From Burkholderiales bacterium (GTDB lineage: Bacteria > Pseudomonadota > Gammaproteobacteria > Burkholderiales > Burkholderiaceae): a stretch of 19,933 bases of DNA. A model generated the notes under the pieces. The model made no database searches. It had not been told where the DNA came from and saw only the letters and a program-made list of their open reading frames with translations. Made by a program: the position numbers and the translations under genes. Shown here one piece after another: positions 13,636 through 19,561 of the stretch (the stretch's first letter is position 1; the number at the start of each line of letters is the position of its first letter). The DNA lies in NCBI GenBank assembly GCA_947372535.1, contig CANBUA010000053.1:1-19933 (forward strand). Reading direction: 5' to 3'.

Positions 13636-14085
13636 TCAGTCGTCGTGCAGGTGGTCGATGCTCAGGTCGGCTTCGACGGCGCCGCTTTTCTCGAAGATGA
13701 GGCGCAAGGGGTAGGTGCGGGCAATCTCCAGCGGGTGATTCAGGCCGGTCAGGCGCAGGTGAATGCCGGTCTCGCCGAGATTGGTTTCTTCACCTTTGGG
13801 GATCAGGAAGTCCACTTGGCGGCTGCCGGCGACACCACCCATTTCCGCGCCTTGCGCGACAGGGGTTTCCACGCCGATGAGGCGGTCGGTCTCGAGCACT
13901 TGATCGAATTTGATCGACACAATCGCGGAGGTATCGTCACCTTCGGTGGCCCGTGCCCAAGGGTGGGTGATGCGCAAGGTGGTGGTGAAGAACTCGCAGG
14001 CGCGAGCTGGTTGGGGCAGCACAAAAGAGGCGCCCAGCGCGAGGCCGGCTTGCAGCACCTGGCGTCGATGGAAGCTGGTCTTCAT
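13636..14085 (-). CDS. Exported PCu(A)C-like (DUF461-type) protein with degenerate copper motif
   Basis: A 149-residue exported protein. The leader has a twin-arginine-like start (HRRQVLQAG, residues 6-14) and ends near PQPARA/C (29), so Tat export is possible. The mature part resembles the periplasmic copper chaperone PCu(A)C fold: THPWARAT near 40-46, the beta-strand core, TGIHLRLTGLNHPL near 106-119, then YPLRLIFEKSGAVEADLSI. The usual HxM copper pair reads H109-L-R and only a lone Met (M82) remains of the first motif; the tail ends in DHLHDD. ATG 14085 has a good AGGAG nine bases upstream. It is the first gene of the minus-strand unit; the next starts 51 bases later. No convincing promoter was found in 14086-14133. 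Confidence 0.78.
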   Translation of the reverse strand: MKTSFHRRQVLQAGLALGASFVLPQPARACEFFTTTLRITHPWARATEGDDTSAIVSIKFDQVLETDRLIGVETPVAQGAEMGGVAGSRQVDFLIPKGEETNLGETGIHLRLTGLNHPLEIARTYPLRLIFEKSGAVEADLSIDHLHDD

Positions 14086-14133
14086 GACGTGAAACTCCTG
14101 GTCAATGCGGACATAAGGTAGGCGTTGAATGCC

Positions 14134-14166
14134 AAAAAGACACCGCGCGAAACCGCACGGTGTCTT
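14134..14166 (-). terminator. Intrinsic terminator of the PHP-domain gene
   Basis: Inverted repeat with perfect 9-bp outer arms (AAGACACCG at 14137-14145 and CGGTGTCTT at 14158-14166) and a further GCG/CGC pair inside after one mismatch. On the minus strand it is followed directly by a run of five T (14138-14134). It begins 25 bases after the stop of the PHP-domain gene. It therefore separates that gene from the five-gene unit starting at 14085. There is no T-run on the plus side, so it works in one direction. Confidence 0.85.
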
Positions 14167-14191
14167 CAACGTGATGACGGTCGGGTCAGCT

Positions 14192-16441
14192 TCAGTTGAC
14201 GCCGGCCACCACGGTCGATCCGGTCACTTCAACGTAGATCGGGTTGCTGTAGAACCAGAGGTCTGACCAGGCGGCCACGTCATAGGCCGAGTACTTCACG
14301 CCGCCGACGGTTGGCAGGTGAGCTGGGCAGCCATTGATCGTCGTGCCGGTGTAGGTGCTGCCAGTGGCGGGCACGTTGCTGCCGACTGTGGTGCAAGGGA
14401 TCCTCAGCTTGCTGCTGTCGTTGGCGTTGGTGTACAGGTCAGACAGCGGGTTGCCGTTGGCATCGGTCTCATAAGGCACGGCGGCGGGCAGGTTGGTGCC
14501 GCGCAGACGCACATATTGAGAAGCCGTGACTGCAGGGATGCGGAAGGTCATCTTCAGGAACTTGCTGTTGTCTGCTCCGTAGACCGCGGACCAGGGCGTG
14601 CTGCCCGTGCCGCTGAAGCTCTTGAGCAAGGCGGCCGTGGTGTTCTTGGCACCAGCGGGCACCACCGACAGGCTGGCGGTTGTGCCGTCTGCCTTGAGCC
14701 AGTTGGTGTTGCGTGGCCATTCACCCGAGTACTCAGCCGTGCCAGGCGTCTTGTAGCCGCTGACCAGGCCGCGGATCAGGTCGATGTGGTCCAGCACGGG
14801 TTGGTTGATGAGCTGGTTCACGCCGATCTGCGCCAACGAGGGGTTGGGGAAGGCGTAAGGCGAGTAGTTCGTGCCTTCAGGATCACGGACCACGACGGAC
14901 ACGACGATCTCGGCGCCGGGGCGCACCTTGAGCTTCTCGCCCATGGTGGCGCAGTTGCTGGCTTCGATGTCGGTGTTGTTCGTGGCGGCAGCCACGGCCA
15001 GCGCCTCAACAGCAGCGTTGCTGCGCGCAGCGGGGCCGGCGTAGGAGGCGCAAGCCACGAAGGCCAGGCGGTCGATCAACTGGCCGCTGGCGGCGAAGTT
15101 GTTGCCGGTGCGCAGGCCGTCAACGATGGTTTGCGGACGCAACTTGTCGCTGCCGTTGCGCACCATGGTGTAGTTGCGCTGGTACTCGCCAGGGTAGAAG
15201 TCTTGCGTCGAGCGGCGGTCATCGGGGCCGAAAGAGCCACGGTTGTGCCAATCGGAGCTGGCGAAGAACCAGAAGTTGCGGCCTTCACCCAGCAGCGCGT
15301 CCCACACGCCGCCGATTTGCGCGCCATAGACGCCCGTGCCGCCGTAGGTAGTGCCACCGACGGAGTCGACCAAGCCAGCGGTGCCGCCGAAGTTGTTGCG
15401 GTTGGGCTGGTACTCGCCACGGTTGGACGAGGCGCCATGGCCAGGCTGGGTCTCGAAGCCGAATGCCACGGTGGGTGCCGTGTTGTTGAAGTTACGCAGG
15501 TGCTCGATGTTGTAGCCGTTGTTGCCGTCCGGGTTGAAGGGGCCGGCGCGTTCCAGGTGGGAAGGCACGTAGTAGCTGCCGCTGGCGTGCTTCTCTGCCA
15601 TCCACTTGAGCGCTTCGAGCGTCTTGTTGTGGCCCTTGACGCCAGTGCCGGTGCCGCCGGCGGGGATCAGCTTCTGGGCCGTGGCGTTCCAGCTGGGATC
15701 AGCCGCGTTCAGGCTGCCGGTGACTGAGCAGTTCCAGTTGTTGCCGGTGCTCGAACCCGTGGTGTTGCCACGGCTGGTGTCGGTGTCGCCACGGTCGAAG
15801 CAGTAAGACCATTGCGCTAGCGCCGTGGCATTGCCCAGGGCGGTGTAGCCAGGTGCAGTCGGCAGGACCACGTTGTCCACCGAGTTGGGCATCTGGCCGG
15901 CGATCACGGTCATCGACACGTGTTCATGGCCGGCGGCCACCGATTCCATGCCGATGAACAAAGGCACGTTCTTTTGCGCCGACAAATACTCGATCACGGG
16001 ATATTGGTATTCCTGGATCGACTGCCAGCGCCACATGTTGCCGTTGCCGCCGACACCGCCGCCCGAGCCCTTGATGTTGGCCGCGCCGATGCTGTTGGCC
16101 CAGGTCGTTGTCGGGCCCTTGCCGGCGACATAGGGGTAGGCGGGGGTGCTCAGGCTGGCGTCTTCGACCAGTGTGCAGTTACGGTTGCCGTTGCCGCCGT
16201 GACCGGCTTGAACGAACCAGTCCAGGCCCCAGGGCGTGTCGTTCTTGTCGGTGACCTTCTTGACCAGCTTCTGCATCGAGATGGAGCCGTCCGAGCAGGT
16301 GGTGTGGTTGTGGAAGTCACCAGCCACGTACTTGCCGGGGGTCTTGGTCGCGGCGGTGGCGACCTGTGGCGCGATGGCCAACGTGCTGAGCGCCGTGACG
16401 ACCGCAGCGGCGATCTGGCTCTTGCTGAATCCGAATTCCAT
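14192..16441 (-). CDS. Secreted PHP-fold metallohydrolase (DUF3604 / CehA-McbA-like)
   Basis: A 749-residue exported protein with a signal peptide (about 1-30, ending QVATA/ATK). PHP-fold metal ligands are visible in order: GDFHNHTTCSDGS (H44, H46, D51), QAGHGG (H81), GMESVAAGHEHVSM (E166, H172, H174), VPSHLERAGPFNPD (H295), QPGHG (H335) and FASSDWHNRG (D397, H399). The order and spacing fit polymerase/histidinol-phosphatase-type phosphoesterases, so hydrolysis of a phospho- or related ester outside the cytoplasm is plausible but not shown. The C-terminal 300 residues look like beta-rich accessory structure and contain no PEP-CTERM tail. ATG 16441 has CCTAGGAG at ideal spacing. It is a single-gene unit bounded by a terminator at 14134-14166 and diverges from the PEP-CTERM gene. 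Confidence 0.85.
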   Translation of the reverse strand: MEFGFSKSQIAAAVVTALSTLAIAPQVATAATKTPGKYVAGDFHNHTTCSDGSISMQKLVKKVTDKNDTPWGLDWFVQAGHGGNGNRNCTLVEDASLSTPAYPYVAGKGPTTTWANSIGAANIKGSGGGVGGNGNMWRWQSIQEYQYPVIEYLSAQKNVPLFIGMESVAAGHEHVSMTVIAGQMPNSVDNVVLPTAPGYTALGNATALAQWSYCFDRGDTDTSRGNTTGSSTGNNWNCSVTGSLNAADPSWNATAQKLIPAGGTGTGVKGHNKTLEALKWMAEKHASGSYYVPSHLERAGPFNPDGNNGYNIEHLRNFNNTAPTVAFGFETQPGHGASSNRGEYQPNRNNFGGTAGLVDSVGGTTYGGTGVYGAQIGGVWDALLGEGRNFWFFASSDWHNRGSFGPDDRRSTQDFYPGEYQRNYTMVRNGSDKLRPQTIVDGLRTGNNFAASGQLIDRLAFVACASYAGPAARSNAAVEALAVAAATNNTDIEASNCATMGEKLKVRPGAEIVVSVVVRDPEGTNYSPYAFPNPSLAQIGVNQLINQPVLDHIDLIRGLVSGYKTPGTAEYSGEWPRNTNWLKADGTTASLSVVPAGAKNTTAALLKSFSGTGSTPWSAVYGADNSKFLKMTFRIPAVTASQYVRLRGTNLPAAVPYETDANGNPLSDLYTNANDSSKLRIPCTTVGSNVPATGSTYTGTTINGCPAHLPTVGGVKYSAYDVAAWSDLWFYSNPIYVEVTGSTVVAGVN

Positions 16442-16448
16442 GTAACTG

Positions 16449-16459
16449 CTCCTAGGTGG
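16449..16459 (-). promoter_or_regulatory. Ribosome binding site block of the PHP-domain gene
   Basis: CCACCTAGGAG on the minus strand, seven bases before ATG 16441. The same 11 bases at the same seven-base spacing precede the divergent PEP-CTERM gene (16683-16693). It fixes the start of the PHP-domain gene. Confidence 0.85.
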
Positions 16460-16477
16460 ACTGAATGTGGCGAAACG

Positions 16478-16534
16478 CCTGCTTGGTGTGCCGAAAGGGC
16501 TCGGACCTGACCCTCGTGGTCCGTTAGAAGCAGG
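16478..16534 (-). promoter_or_regulatory. Possible folded 5' leader of the PHP-domain gene
   Basis: In the leader between the promoter-like element and the ATG, nested complementary segments could form a closed structure. An outer stem pairs CCTGCTT (16534-16528, minus) with AAGCAGG (16484-16478). Inside it is a perfect CGGACC/GGTCCG hairpin (16523-16518 with 16507-16502) and a short GCC/GGC hairpin (16500-16490). Together these would make a three-way junction. The outer stem sits very near the predicted transcript start, so it could equally be a protein-binding inverted repeat. No known riboswitch class is recognised. Confidence 0.35.
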
Positions 16535-16568
16535 AGGTTATTGAGCGAAGGTGACATGCGCGTGACGC
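16535..16568 (-). promoter_or_regulatory. Promoter-like element driving the PHP-domain gene (Pho-box-like)
   Basis: Read on the minus strand from 16568: GCGTCAC, four bases, ATGTCAC, then CTTCGCTC and AATAAC. The two GTCAC half-sites are spaced at 11 bp, the geometry of PhoB/OmpR-family sites. They match the enterobacterial Pho box (CTGTCAT-N4-CTGTCAT) only partly, but the -10-like box follows eight bases later. It aligns at 25 of 34 positions with the plus-strand element at 16605-16638, which points the other way. The -10-like box lies about 95 bases upstream of the ATG. Confidence 0.5.
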
Positions 16569-16604
16569 AGCGCAAATCAAACGGCGCAGTGACCTCCATG
16601 CCGA

Positions 16605-16638
16605 CCGTCACACGGCTGTCGCGATCGCTCCATAAGCT
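16605..16638 (+). promoter_or_regulatory. Promoter-like element driving the PEP-CTERM gene (Pho-box-like)
   Basis: CCGTCAC, four bases, CTGTCGC, eight bases ending in TCGCTC, then CATAAG (16631-16636) as a -10-like box. The half-sites repeat at 11 bp. It is a near copy of the minus-strand element at 16535-16568: CGTCAC, TGTC, TCGCTC and ATAA all align with no gaps. It is 62 bases upstream of ATG 16701. The regulator is unproven; PhoB or another OmpR-family response regulator would fit the repeat geometry. Confidence 0.5.
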
Positions 16639-16644
16639 TTGGCG

Positions 16645-16684
16645 GGTCATTTCATGCCTTCTTCCTTTTTCCTTTTGCATGACC
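16645..16684 (+). promoter_or_regulatory. Leader hairpin options upstream of the PEP-CTERM gene
   Basis: Two mutually exclusive perfect 6-bp pairings flank a pyrimidine-only stretch (16658-16676): GGTCAT (16645-16650) with ATGACC (16679-16684), or TCATGC (16652-16657) with GCATGA (16677-16682). Both end at the edge of the Shine-Dalgarno block at 16683-16693. This could tune translation or stabilise the mRNA; it may also be chance. Confidence 0.3.
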
Positions 16685-16693
16685 ACCTAGGAG
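16683..16693 (+). promoter_or_regulatory. Ribosome binding site block of the PEP-CTERM gene
   Basis: CCACCTAGGAG, seven bases before ATG 16701. It is identical in sequence and spacing to the block before the divergent PHP-domain gene at 16449-16459, and it fixes the start here. Confidence 0.85.
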
Positions 16694-16700
16694 TTCCCCA

Positions 16701-17333
16701 ATGAAGTTGTTTCCCACCCTGTCGCTGGCCTTGCTGGCCGCCGCGCCCGCCCTGGCCTCTGCTGCTGCCTTCCAGGTCGATTTCGAAAAGAACTGGGATT
16801 ACGCCAACGGCGGTGTCAATGCCTACTACGGCGGCGGCACGGCTGCTGACGGCAGCAACGGCACCGACCTGGGCGTGACCTTCCTGAACGTCTCTGGTCT
16901 GTCCAACGACGCGGACTTCACGTACTACAGCGGCGCACCTTCTTCGCAAGGCACGGCCTACGCCTACACGGTGGACGCCGGCGACAAGGCCCTGATGAAC
17001 GTGGCCGCCGGGGTCAATGGCGTGCTGTCGTTCTATTACGCCAGCCCCGCCGCTGCGACAGGCGCTGTCAAGGCCTATTCCGGCCTGAATGGCACGGGCA
17101 CTTTGCTGGGCTCTTTCGACCTGGCGGCCAATGGTTCGGCCTATGACGTCTGGACCAAGGTGACCTTCAACTTCTCTGGCACCGCCAAGTCCTTCGACCT
17201 GACCGGCAGCGCCAACCTGGTCGGCCTGGACAACATCAGCGCCGTGCCTGAAGCCAGCAGCTCGCTGCTGGTGTTGCTCGGCGGCTTGCCTGTGGCCGTG
17301 GGCCTGATGGCTCGCCGCCGCCGTGCTGCCTGA
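16701..17333 (+). CDS. PEP-CTERM sorting domain surface/secreted protein
   Basis: A 210-residue exported protein of unknown function. A Sec signal peptide (1 to about 21, MKLFPTLSLALLAAAPALAS) is followed by a beta-rich, Gly/Ala/Ser/Asn-rich domain low in charge and without Cys. The C-terminus has the three parts of a PEP-CTERM tag: VPEAS at 182-186, a hydrophobic helix of about 16 residues and the basic end ARRRRAA. Such tags are cut by an exosortase (EpsH/XrtA type), usually in exopolysaccharide-producing bacteria; the exosortase must lie elsewhere. The gene is monocistronic, with a promoter-like element at 16605-16638, a strong ribosome binding site and a terminator 25 bases after the stop. 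It diverges from the PHP-domain gene with matched control elements. Confidence 0.9.
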   Translation: MKLFPTLSLALLAAAPALASAAAFQVDFEKNWDYANGGVNAYYGGGTAADGSNGTDLGVTFLNVSGLSNDADFTYYSGAPSSQGTAYAYTVDAGDKALMNVAAGVNGVLSFYYASPAAATGAVKAYSGLNGTGTLLGSFDLAANGSAYDVWTKVTFNFSGTAKSFDLTGSANLVGLDNISAVPEASSSLLVLLGGLPVAVGLMARRRRAA

Positions 17334-17421: not shown

Positions 17422-19458
17422 TCAGAAGCGAAGCTGCCAGGTCACCCGCACTGTGCGAGGTTCGGCAGGATGCACATGGCGATCTTCTACGGGGGCTGTT
17501 TCACCAGCCAGTTTGGATTCATAGAAGTATTCGATGTCGTTGACCTTGCGATCGGCCAGGTTGAAGACATCAAAAGTCAGGTCCATGTCCTTGCTCAACT
17601 GCCGGCTCACGCGCAGGTTGGTCAGCAAGGTGGCCGGTGCCCGCTCGCTGTTGTCTTCGATCAAAGCACGCTGACCGAGGTAACGCCATTGCAGGCTGGC
17701 CGACCAGGGCCCGAGCTCACGCAACGTGACCGCGACCGAGCCCACCTTGGAGACCGCACCGGGGATGTAGCGGCCTGCCGGCGCATCGTCTGAGAAACGC
17801 GCGCGTGTCCAGGCCAGGTCTGCATCGATCAGCAACCAGGGGCGCGGGATCCAGCGATTGTTCCACTCGATGCCGCTGCGCTGGCTGGGTCGGTTGGCCT
17901 CGGTCGTACCGGCATCGCCTACATAAACCAGCTCCGACTTCGAATCCAGCCGCCACAGCGCCAAGGAGCTTTGCAGACCGGCAATGGCCTCCGTGCGTGC
18001 GCCGACTTCATAGCCCTTGCTGGGGACCAGGCCGGGGACCGGGTCGATGGCGTTGGTGGTGCCGCGCGCATCGTTGCTGTGAAAGCCACGGCCCGCATTG
18101 AGGAAAAACTCGGTCTTGGCCCACGGCCCGAAGATGGCCGAGAACTTGGGCGAGACTTGGGTGGACGACGTTTGCCCCGAGTTCACGGGCTGGTTGCTGT
18201 CGACATCGAAACTGGCGTGATCGACACGCGCGCCCAGCACCGTGCGCAGCCAGGGTGTCCAGGTCAAGCCGTTCTGGGCATACAGGCCGATGCCTGTTTG
18301 CCGCACGGCATCGTCGCGCGTGGTGCCGTTGCGCACACGCGCCGTGGTGGTGAACAAGCCCACCTTGATCCGATCATGGCGAAGCTGCATGCCGACCTCG
18401 GTGCTCGACTCATGGCCCCACAGCGTGTGTGTCCAGTCCTTGACTGCAGCCAGGCCAAACACCGTGCGCTGATCGTGCTGCTCGAACTGATCGCCTTGCG
18501 GATCGTGGTCCAGCAGGTAGGTGAAGTTGGAAAACAAATCGAGCTGGTAGTGCATCAGGTAGCTCGACACCTTGATGCCGCCGTCGGCACCACGGTCCCG
18601 CCATTCGCCCGAGAGGCTGTAGCGCGAGGTGTTGCCGCCGTCCGTGGGGTCGATGGCATCGAAACGCCCGATGGCACCGGAGTCGATCGCTCGCTGTGGC
18701 ACCTGGTCGGTCGACGCCCAACTGGCGTCATAGCCCATCAGGCTGGCCGACCAACCACGCGCCACACTGCCTTCGCTGAGCGTCACCACGCCGTTGACTT
18801 TGCGCAGGTTCTCCGGCAAGGTCCAGGGGCCGTCGTTGTGCATGAGCTCCACAGCGCCCAGCAAGCTGCGGTCGGTGCCGATGGTGCCCGAGCCAGCGGC
18901 CACGGCCCGCGCGTACTGGTGCTCGCCCAAGGTCAGTTGCACAAACGGCTGCGACAGACGCTTGCGGTAGAGCATGCTGGCCGCGCCCGCCGCCGCGAAG
19001 TCGCCGTCCTGCGCGAAATAAGGCCCCTTGCGGTAGTCGATGCGATCGACCAGTTCGGGGATGACGAAGTTGAGGTCGGTGTAGCCCTGGCCGTGAGCGT
19101 GCGTCGGCATGTTGACGGGCATGCCGTTGACCGACGTAGCGAAGTCCGTGCCGTGGTCAAGGTTGAAGCCGCGCAGGAAGTATTGATTGGCCTTGCCGTC
19201 GCCGCTGTGCTGGGTGACGATCATGCCGGGCACGAACTCCAGCAACTCACCGGGTCGCAAGGCCGGCCGGCTCTTGAGCAATTCGCTGCGGATCTGCCCT
19301 TCGGAGGCTGCATCTGAGGTGCCGACGGCATTGTCGTAGTGGCCGTGAATCACGACAGGAGGCAACTCGACCGGTTGGGTTTTGAGTTGGGCTTGGGCAC
19401 CAGCGGCCGAAACCAGCAAGGCCACCGCCAGCCAGGCGGGAGAAGGCTGAAAATGCAT
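17422..19458 (-). CDS. TonB-dependent outer-membrane receptor, substrate unknown
   Basis: A 678-residue outer-membrane receptor. The signal peptide is about 1-24 (ending GAQA/QLK), a TonB-box-like ELPPVVIHG is at 31-39, and the plug domain runs about 45-165 with RPGELLEFVPGMIV, NQYFLRGFNLDHGTDFATSV and VDRIDYRKGPY. The rest is barrel strands, ending in an aromatic VTWQLRF as outer-membrane proteins do. The plug carries a His-rich loop NMPTHAHGQGYTDLNF (H120, H122). No FecA-type signalling extension is present. The start is ATG 19458; the frame stays open to a TTG at 19521, but MHFQPSPAWLAVALLV is the better signal peptide. The ribosome binding site is weak. An 11-bp-period repeat like those of the PHP/PEP-CTERM pair lies upstream at 19536-19553. 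Confidence 0.92.
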   Translation of the reverse strand: MHFQPSPAWLAVALLVSAAGAQAQLKTQPVELPPVVIHGHYDNAVGTSDAASEGQIRSELLKSRPALRPGELLEFVPGMIVTQHSGDGKANQYFLRGFNLDHGTDFATSVNGMPVNMPTHAHGQGYTDLNFVIPELVDRIDYRKGPYFAQDGDFAAAGAASMLYRKRLSQPFVQLTLGEHQYARAVAAGSGTIGTDRSLLGAVELMHNDGPWTLPENLRKVNGVVTLSEGSVARGWSASLMGYDASWASTDQVPQRAIDSGAIGRFDAIDPTDGGNTSRYSLSGEWRDRGADGGIKVSSYLMHYQLDLFSNFTYLLDHDPQGDQFEQHDQRTVFGLAAVKDWTHTLWGHESSTEVGMQLRHDRIKVGLFTTTARVRNGTTRDDAVRQTGIGLYAQNGLTWTPWLRTVLGARVDHASFDVDSNQPVNSGQTSSTQVSPKFSAIFGPWAKTEFFLNAGRGFHSNDARGTTNAIDPVPGLVPSKGYEVGARTEAIAGLQSSLALWRLDSKSELVYVGDAGTTEANRPSQRSGIEWNNRWIPRPWLLIDADLAWTRARFSDDAPAGRYIPGAVSKVGSVAVTLRELGPWSASLQWRYLGQRALIEDNSERAPATLLTNLRVSRQLSKDMDLTFDVFNLADRKVNDIEYFYESKLAGETAPVEDRHVHPAEPRTVRVTWQLRF

Positions 19459-19485
19459 GAAGACAGCAATACCAAGGTGAGATGA

Positions 19486-19507
19486 CCGGGCCAACAACTC
19501 GGCCCAG
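19486..19507 (-). other. Hairpin in the TonB-receptor leader
   Basis: On the minus strand CTGGGCC (19507-19501) can pair with GGCCCGG (19492-19486) around an eight-base loop, giving seven pairs with one G-U. No T-run follows, so it is not a typical terminator. It lies 28 bases before the receptor ATG and may be a leader structure or chance. Confidence 0.3.
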
Positions 19508-19535
19508 CATACAGGTCGCAAGGTAGCGGTCCCCT

Positions 19536-19553
19536 GTGACGCCGTGATGACGC
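19536..19553 (-). promoter_or_regulatory. 11-bp-period direct repeat upstream of the TonB receptor (Pho-box-like)
   Basis: Read on the minus strand from 19553: GCGTCAT, CACG, GCGTCAC. Two near-identical 7-base half-sites are separated by four bases, the same geometry as the elements at 16535-16568 and 16605-16638. The GCGTCAC half-site is identical to one before the PHP-domain gene. The TCGCTC and ATAA parts are not conserved here, and no clear -10 box follows. It lies 77 bases upstream of ATG 19458. Confidence 0.4.
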
Positions 19554-19561
19554 TGCTTGCC

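What the first reader, a model, noticed from the sequence alone, without database searches (positions are those of the whole stretch)
16535..16638. Two inverted copies of a ~34-bp promoter-like element in the divergent PHP / PEP-CTERM region
Minus-strand 16568-16535 and plus-strand 16605-16638 align without gaps at 25 of 34 positions. Shared blocks are CGTCAC, CG, TGTC, a C, TCGCTC, ATAA and CT. Each copy has two GTC-containing half-sites at 11-bp period followed eight bases later by an ATAA-type -10 box, and each faces its own gene. This is good evidence that the secreted hydrolase and the surface protein are controlled by the same regulator. The geometry resembles a Pho box (CTGTCAT-N4-CTGTCAT) although matches to that consensus are partial.
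Basis: partly seen in the sequence, partly recalled or inferred. Interest (0 to 1): 0.72.

Follow-up and report, generated by a model that had tools for sequence, protein, structure and literature searches.

The report
Phosphate-starvation switches for surface-protein genes
The two mirrored DNA elements look like a pair of phosphate-starvation switches (Pho boxes), one in front of a secreted-hydrolase operon and one in front of a surface-protein gene; they match the switches of phosphate-uptake genes in related bacteria, which places a little-studied gene set in the response to phosphate shortage.

Summary
The inverted copies match at 25 of 34 positions; 300 shuffles reach at most 22. Each copy reads GTCAY-N6-GTCRY-N10-TANNNT: two half-sites 11 bp apart plus a -10 box, facing its own gene. 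The element recurs in orthologous promoters: GTCA-N6-TGTC is in 23 of 39 non-redundant divergent regions, against at most 7 for any dyad in five shuffled sets. A matrix made without the window ranks these two sites first and second in the window; the same matrix finds the pstS promoter element in 25 of 27 related genomes above the 99th percentile of 587 controls. A matrix from pstS sites alone finds the two copies back, and the module matrix finds E. coli's phoA and pstS boxes in register. The best reading is a pair of back-to-back, PhoB-activated Pho-box promoters. A third, unreported box precedes the TonB receptor gene (19520-19551). Pho boxes are known; the new part is a conserved, uncharacterised surface module placed in the Pho regulon. 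28 of 77 PHP upstream regions lack a strong box. PhoB binding and transcript starts are untested.

The parts
16551..16568 (-). Pho box of the PHP-hydrolase operon (GCGTCACGCGCATGTCAC; half-sites 11 bp apart)
   Evidence: second-best site of the window with the module matrix (32.7 bits), second-best with the pstS-only matrix (15.6)
16535..16540 (-). predicted -10 hexamer TAACCT of the PHP operon promoter
   Evidence: Aligned with the TANNNT columns of orthologous sites; transcript start inferred near 16528, not shown
16605..16622 (+). Pho box of the PEP-CTERM gene (CCGTCACACGGCTGTCGC)
   Evidence: best site of the window with the module matrix (35.1 bits), third with the pstS-only matrix (14.7)
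16633..16638 (+). predicted -10 hexamer TAAGCT of the PEP-CTERM gene promoter
   Evidence: Aligned columns as above; transcript start inferred near 16645, not shown
16449..16459 (-). CCACCTAGGAG with ribosome-binding site of the PHP gene, identical to the one of the PEP gene
16683..16693 (+). CCACCTAGGAG with ribosome-binding site of the PEP-CTERM gene
14192..16441 (-). secreted PHP / CehA-McbA-like metallohydrolase, 749 aa, head of the minus-strand operon
   Evidence: NCBIfam NF038032 43 bits, below its cut-off of 80; no Pfam match at E 0.001; H44, H46, D51, H81, E166, H172, H295, D397, H399 invariant in the 30 aligned sequences (window plus 29 of 80 loci); secretion is read from the N-terminus by eye
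16701..17333 (+). PEP-CTERM-type surface protein, 210 aa
   Evidence: NCBIfam NF038120 24 bits, below its cut-off of 80; C-terminal VPEA...hydrophobic...RRRR visible in the sequence (motif recalled)
13636..14169 (-). PCu(A)C copper-chaperone-like protein, likely operon member
   Evidence: Pfam PF04314
12736..13590 (-). PPIC-type peptidyl-prolyl isomerase, likely operon member
   Evidence: Pfam PF13145
11786..12739 (-). HupE/UreJ_2 membrane protein, likely operon member
   Evidence: Pfam PF13795
11133..11903 (-). 2OG-Fe(II) oxygenase-like protein, likely operon member
   Evidence: Pfam PF13759
8456..11305 (-). fused MFS/spermidine-synthase-like protein, likely operon member
   Evidence: Pfam PF01564, NF037959 above cut-off
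19536..19553 (-). third Pho box (GCGTCATCACGGCGTCAC), before the TonB-dependent receptor gene; not in the finding
   Evidence: Best site of the window with the pstS-only matrix, 15.9 bits; exact pattern match; weaker aligned site in L002 (10.0 bits). Against: the module matrix scores it only 1.3 bits, and 14 of 19 receptor genes in the loci have no site of 10 bits or more
19520..19525 (-). predicted -10 hexamer TACCTT of the receptor promoter
   Evidence: implies the receptor starts at the ATG at 19458, not at the TTG at 19521 (inference)
17422..19521 (-). TonB-dependent receptor
   Evidence: Pfam PF00593 and PF07715

Best explanation
The two inverted copies are two back-to-back Pho boxes, each with its own -10 box 12 bases after the last GTC. 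When phosphate is scarce, phosphorylated PhoB would bind the pair of 11-bp-spaced half-sites in place of a -35 box and recruit sigma-70 RNA polymerase. One copy drives the leftward operon (PHP hydrolase, PCu(A)C, PPIase, HupE/UreJ, 2OG-Fe oxygenase, MFS/spermidine-synthase-like), the other the rightward PEP-CTERM gene; a third box probably serves the nearby TonB receptor. Shown here: the elements, their conservation, their placement and their likeness to the pstS element. Inferred: PhoB binding, activation, transcript starts, the operon, and a role of the module in getting phosphorus from outside the cell.
For: 25 of 34 match, 0 of 300 shuffles reach it. Unbiased dyad search: GTCA-N6-TGTC in 23 of 39 regions, five shuffled sets at most 7. 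Matrix built without the window puts both copies first, 35.1 and 32.7 bits, next 11.3. Same matrix: 25 of 27 pstS upstream regions above the 99th percentile of 587 controls, AUC 0.988. Reverse test: a matrix from 17 pstS sites alone gives three strong sites in the window, 15.9, 15.6 and 14.7 bits, next 7.3. The module matrix finds the E. coli phoA box (11.4, next -0.5) and pstS boxes (18.4 and 4.5, the top two) in the same register. PHP boxes not used in training: 28 of 35 loci; in 6 of the 7 without one, the pstS matrix finds a site at PCuAC, which then heads the gene run. Whole-genome pattern in 9 genomes: 31 hits against 6 for the reversed control; 21 are pstS (9 of 9 genomes) or this module, on which the pattern was modelled, and the other 10 include 2 ppk genes, 2 ABC-transporter ATPase genes that look like phnC and 1 phytase-like gene. 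One PhoB above cut-off in each of 12 of 12 genomes. A pstS gene lies in the module locus of Variovorax, L056.
Against: No binding, expression or transcript data were found for this module. 28 of 77 PHP upstream regions score below 14 bits, 22 of them in loci whose hydrolase is at most 72% identical, and in three loci (L026, L030, L043) neither the PEP gene, which comes first there, nor PHP has a box. 23 of 58 PEP genes examined lack one. Two of 27 pstS regions (L089, L099) fall below the control threshold. Outside pstS and the module the genome-wide pattern gives 10 hits against 6 control hits, and 5 of the 10 (1 fasciclin, 2 LD-carboxypeptidase, 2 unclear) have no plain phosphate function. 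The window's own genome is not held, so its pstS and phoB could not be read.
Confidence: 0.9

Rival explanations
1. The elements are bound by another OmpR-family regulator with an 11-bp direct-repeat site, not PhoB.
For: These genomes carry many regulators that match the PhoB model (68 to 114 matches counted per genome in 12 genomes), and 11-bp-spaced repeats are typical of the family (recalled).
Against: The element is recognised at pstS in 25 of 27 genomes and in the E. coli phoA and pstS promoters. The genome-wide pattern also lands on ppk and other phosphate-type genes.
Confidence: 0.06
2. The two copies are the remains of a recent inverted duplication of one promoter with its leader (an identical 11-bp CCACCTAGGAG precedes both start codons) and need not both be functional.
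For: Exact 11-bp leader match, seen in the window only and in none of the 44 related regions.
Against: Both boxes are present in relatives, each with its own features (PEP side often TGTCG...CTAGACT, PHP side GTCAC...), and the PHP box stays with its gene when a third gene lies between. The likeness is therefore old and kept. The leader match is mostly ribosome-binding site.
Confidence: 0.03
3. Chance similarity of two promoter regions, with a sigma-54/PrsR-type PEP-CTERM promoter as the real control.
For: Other PEP-CTERM genes are known to have sigma-54 promoters (recalled).
Against: No sigma-54 consensus site with up to 3 mismatches lies in 16442-16700; the nearest hits are inside the two genes, and the window has fewer than expected, 32 against 50. 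Shuffles do not give the repeat.
Confidence: 0.01

Closest known systems
Pho box (PhoB operator) of proteobacteria, e.g. E. coli phoA and pstS
   Same: Two direct half-sites 11 bp apart, GTCA-N6-TGTC, -10 hexamer 12 bases after the last GTC in phoA; the box takes the place of -35 (recalled)
   Different: The form here is GTCAC/GTCAC or GTCAC/TGTCG rather than CTGTCAT/CTGTCAT; -10 is mostly TANNNT; gene targets differ
pstS promoters of Roseateles, Aquabacterium, Paucibacter and related Burkholderiales
   Same: Same element and register: 25 of 27 regions recognised by a matrix trained only on the PHP/PEP module
   Different: A promoter before a phosphate-binding protein gene, not the divergent pair; second half usually GTCAC/GTCAT rather than TGTCG
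Predicted Pho boxes before olsB in Burkholderia sensu lato (PMC7814305, passages read)
   Same: Predicted PhoB sites in the same order of bacteria
   Different: Different target (ornithine lipids); matrix seeded from alphaproteobacteria; the passages seen mention no surface-protein module. Its matrices are in figures and supplements that I did not see, so sites could not be compared
PEP-CTERM genes under response regulator DVUA0057 in Desulfovibrio vulgaris (PMC3333781, passages read)
   Same: PEP-CTERM genes controlled by a two-component response regulator
   Different: There the regulator is encoded on a plasmid in an exopolysaccharide-type operon; PhoB (DVU1083) is described separately in that paper

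Membership tests
Pho box / Pho regulon promoter | Two direct GTCA-like half-sites with 11-bp period | tested here: met
Pho box / Pho regulon promoter | -10 hexamer about 12 bases after the last GTC | tested here: met
   Window copies 12 bases; same spacing as E. coli phoA; some PEP boxes of relatives have 13. Whether it acts as -10 is not shown
Pho box / Pho regulon promoter | Same element at undisputed Pho genes of the same bacteria (pstS, ppk) | tested here: met
   pstS 25 of 27 and reverse test; ppk in 2 of 9 genomes by strict pattern
Pho box / Pho regulon promoter | PhoB encoded in the genome | tested here: inconclusive
   12 of 12 relatives have one match above cut-off each; the window's own genome is not held
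Pho box / Pho regulon promoter | Close match to the E. coli consensus CTGTCAT-N4-CTGTCAT | tested here: inconclusive
   10 of 14 and 9 of 14; five and fifty positions of the window score 10 and 9
Pho box / Pho regulon promoter | PhoB binds and activates under phosphate limitation | not testable with these tools
   Needs experiment
CehA/McbA-type PHP metallohydrolase (the divergent gene) | Match to the family model above its cut-off | tested here: not met
   NF038032 43 bits against cut-off 80, E 3e-11
CehA/McbA-type PHP metallohydrolase (the divergent gene) | Invariant metal-ligand-like His/Asp/Glu residues | tested here: met
   H44xH46, D51, H81, E166, H172, H295, D397xH399 invariant in 30 sequences; reading them as ligands is by analogy

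The most novel reading that the evidence does not exclude
The module is a so far undescribed phosphate-scavenging system of PEP-CTERM bacteria: a secreted PHP-type metallohydrolase that frees phosphate from organic phosphorus, matured by its own PPIase, metal chaperone and HupE-like membrane protein, with a PEP-CTERM surface protein and a TonB receptor for the product or metal, all switched on by PhoB.
Probability: 0.4. Interest if true: 0.7.

Novelty: new member of a known kind. Interest (0 to 1): 0.5.

Why it matters
It turns a set of uncharacterised surface and membrane genes, conserved across many Burkholderiales and reaching Steroidobacter, into candidates with a testable condition: phosphate starvation. 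PEP-CTERM proteins mostly have no known function (recalled), and a regulon assignment is a direct handle. It also gives a working Pho-box matrix for this group of bacteria.

Tried and rejected

Caveats on counts. The module matrix uses 30 of the 46 pattern matches, chosen by hand; the 16 dropped were the 2 window sites and 14 near-duplicates, antisense or overlapping matches. The 49 PHP and 35 PEP sites include these training sites. Of 31 genomes searched for pstS, all had a match but 27 were above the family cut-off; only those 27 were scored. The pstS matrix uses 17 of the 27 sites, near-duplicates and weak ones left out. The best 'control' region (27.3 bits) is itself a likely Pho box in L056, so that control is conservative. 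The 35 loci include a few close pairs (such as L014/L015, L013/L025). At its threshold of 10.5 bits the pstS matrix gives 56 unassigned sites in 1.26 Mb of loci, against 19 in mononucleotide-shuffled loci, so single weak hits mean little. The pattern was written after seeing module and pstS sites, and after the third site had been noticed. Two pairs of its hits (L143/L149 and L151/L152) are the same gene in two close Aquabacterium genomes. By that strict pattern 16 of 45 divergent regions (window included) and 25 of 27 pstS regions match. In one search one protein of each such pair was scanned; the second ppk (L148) was read by eye. Of 45 divergent regions found, 44 plus the window were analysed (L064 skipped).

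Literature: full-text searches showed no listed paper that puts a PEP-CTERM or PHP/CehA-like gene under PhoB; two searches returned no paper at all. Passages of PMC7814305, PMC3333781 and PMC2907700 were read; the rest only as listings, and long result lists were shown in part. Most subscription papers are not in that library.

Full report
OBSERVATION. No better inverted 34-mer pair exists in the 259-bp intergenic region, and 300 dinucleotide-preserving shuffles reach 22 at most. A repeat finder lists the same pair. Each copy reads GTCAY-N6-GTCRY-N10-TANNNT. In the 19,933-base window this pattern occurs three times without mismatch, against 0.04 expected even when one mismatch is allowed: the two copies, and a third site at 19520-19551 on the minus strand just upstream of the TonB-dependent receptor gene. 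The pattern was written after module and pstS sites had been seen.

SURROUNDINGS. The left copy faces a minus-strand run of genes: PHP/CehA-like hydrolase, PCu(A)C, PPIC-type isomerase, HupE/UreJ_2, 2OG-Fe(II) oxygenase and an MFS/spermidine-synthase-like protein. The right copy faces a PEP-CTERM-type gene. The hydrolase matches the CehA/McbA model at 43 bits, below its cut-off of 80, so its family is tentative; nine histidine and acidic residues that look like PHP metal ligands are invariant in the 30 sequences aligned. Eighty related loci were fetched, the best of 132. The hydrolase, PPIase, HupE, 2OG oxygenase, spermidine-synthase-like and PEP-CTERM genes recur together in most of them, mainly in Burkholderiales and also in Steroidobacter, which lacks the PEP-CTERM match; PCu(A)C often lies between the PEP-CTERM gene and the hydrolase.

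CONSERVATION. In 39 non-redundant divergent regions (38 relatives plus the window) an unbiased count of all 4-mer pairs puts GTCA-N6-TGTC first, in 23 of 39 (22 without the window); the best pair in five shuffled sets reaches 7. A 36-column matrix built from 30 orthologous sites, without the window, gives the window copies 35.1 and 32.7 bits and the next position 11.3. Over the 80 loci (1.26 Mb) it finds sites of at least 14 bits at PHP in 49 loci, PEP in 35, PCuAC in 7, PPIase in 4 and the receptor in 1, and 16 unassigned sites (training sites included). In 35 loci where PCu(A)C separates the genes, the PHP promoter was not used for the matrix, yet 28 of 35 carry the box; 200 column-shuffled matrices give a mean of 0.1 and a maximum of 3. 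In 6 of the 7 exceptions the pstS matrix finds a site at PCu(A)C instead, which then heads the gene run (checked after seeing the exceptions). Misses: 28 of 77 PHP upstream regions are below 14 bits, 22 of them in loci whose hydrolase is at most 72% identical to the window's. Of 58 PEP genes examined, 23 lack a site of 14 bits. All 11 that point the same way as PHP lack one; in eight of these PEP lies downstream of PHP, where no own promoter is needed, but in three (L026, L030, L043) PEP comes first and a box would have been expected.

WHICH REGULATOR. Of 31 relatives' genomes, 27 have a pstS match above the family cut-off, and the upstream regions of these 27 were scored. The matrix trained on the PHP/PEP module alone exceeds the 99th percentile of 587 control upstream regions in 25 of 27 (AUC 0.988), at 150-178 bases before the first matched pstS residue; L089 and L099 fall below. 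The reverse test also works: a matrix from 17 pstS sites gives in the window 19519-19554 (15.9 bits), 16534 (15.6) and 16604 (14.7), and then falls to 7.3. The module matrix picks out E. coli's phoA box (11.4 bits, next -0.5) and both pstS boxes as its two top hits (18.4 and 4.5). The E. coli phoA sequence shows the same GTCA-N6-TGTC and 12 bases from GTC to TATAGT. The strict pattern in 9 whole genomes gives 31 hits, the reversed pattern 6. Of the 31, 9 are pstS (one in each of 9 genomes), 11 are PHP or PEP boxes and 1 a PCu(A)C box of this module; these were the models for the pattern. The other 10 are: 2 ABC-transporter ATPase genes that look like phnC (Pfam shows only ABC_tran; the name is my reading), 2 polyphosphate kinase genes, 1 phytase-like gene, 1 fasciclin gene divergent from pstS, 2 LD-carboxypeptidase genes and 2 unclear. 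So the pattern is not proof by count outside the genes it was modelled on, but its new targets lean to phosphate functions. PhoB is present above cut-off once in each of 12 of 12 genomes. Together, above all by the two-way pstS test, this is strong comparative evidence that the sites are PhoB operators.

MECHANISM. Most likely, phosphorylated PhoB binds each pair of half-sites and recruits sigma-70 polymerase to the -10 box, giving two separate divergent promoters with 36 bp between the boxes. Predicted starts are about 16528 (minus) and 16645 (plus). The absence of a sigma-70 consensus promoter fits an activator-dependent promoter. Binding, activation and starts are inferred, not shown.

THIRD BOX. 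The site before the TonB receptor scores 15.9 with the pstS matrix but only 1.3 with the module matrix. L002, a close relative with the same receptor gene, keeps a weaker aligned site (10.0 bits); L016, L017 and L079 have sites of 17.5-22.9 bits before their receptor genes and L048 one of 10.3, while 14 of 19 receptor genes have none of 10 bits or more within the stretch examined. I consider it probable, not certain. It implies that translation starts at the ATG at 19458.

COMPARISON AND NOVELTY. The elements are Pho boxes in a Burkholderiales form, so the kind is known. The searches made (open-licence library only) listed no paper that links PEP-CTERM or PHP/CehA-like genes to PhoB. The new content is the assignment of a conserved, uncharacterised surface module to the phosphate-starvation response. 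In a Variovorax locus (L056) a pstS gene lies beside the module. That the hydrolase is a phosphoesterase remains a hypothesis; structure prediction was too weak to help.

Noticed in passing
window 19520-19553 (minus): Third Pho-box-like promoter before the TonB-dependent receptor gene; suggests the receptor belongs to the same regulon and starts at the ATG at 19458.
   Followed up: yes
window 16449-16459 and 16683-16693: Identical 11-bp CCACCTAGGAG in front of both start codons, on opposite strands; mostly ribosome-binding site, found in none of the 44 related regions.
   Followed up: partly
L056 350-1495: A pstS gene lies beside the module in Variovorax sp. J2P1-59; a strong Pho-box-like site (32.7 bits, pstS matrix) lies 371 bases before the estimated receptor start in the same locus.
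   Followed up: partly
L012-L015, L019-L021, L025, L028, L033, L036, L064, upstream of the PPIase gene: Similar weaker site (GTCGTC...TGTCTTG...TAGCAT type) 2-45 bases before the PPIase start in Roseateles-like loci; possibly an internal Pho promoter.
   Followed up: no
L143 and L149 (site at 1500): Perfect, conserved Pho-box pattern upstream of an LD-carboxypeptidase (peptidase S66) gene in two Aquabacterium genomes; no known phosphate link.
   Followed up: no
L138: Pho-box pattern 6 bases before a called start of a phytase-like (PF13449) protein, on the same contig about 9 kb beyond the fetched L014 locus.
   Followed up: no
L015, L023, L040, L072: MAG contigs labelled Methylotenera, Methylococcaceae or Planktophila carry Burkholderiales-like copies of the module; perhaps binning or labelling errors (the intergenic region of L015 is nearly the same as that of L014).
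   Followed up: no
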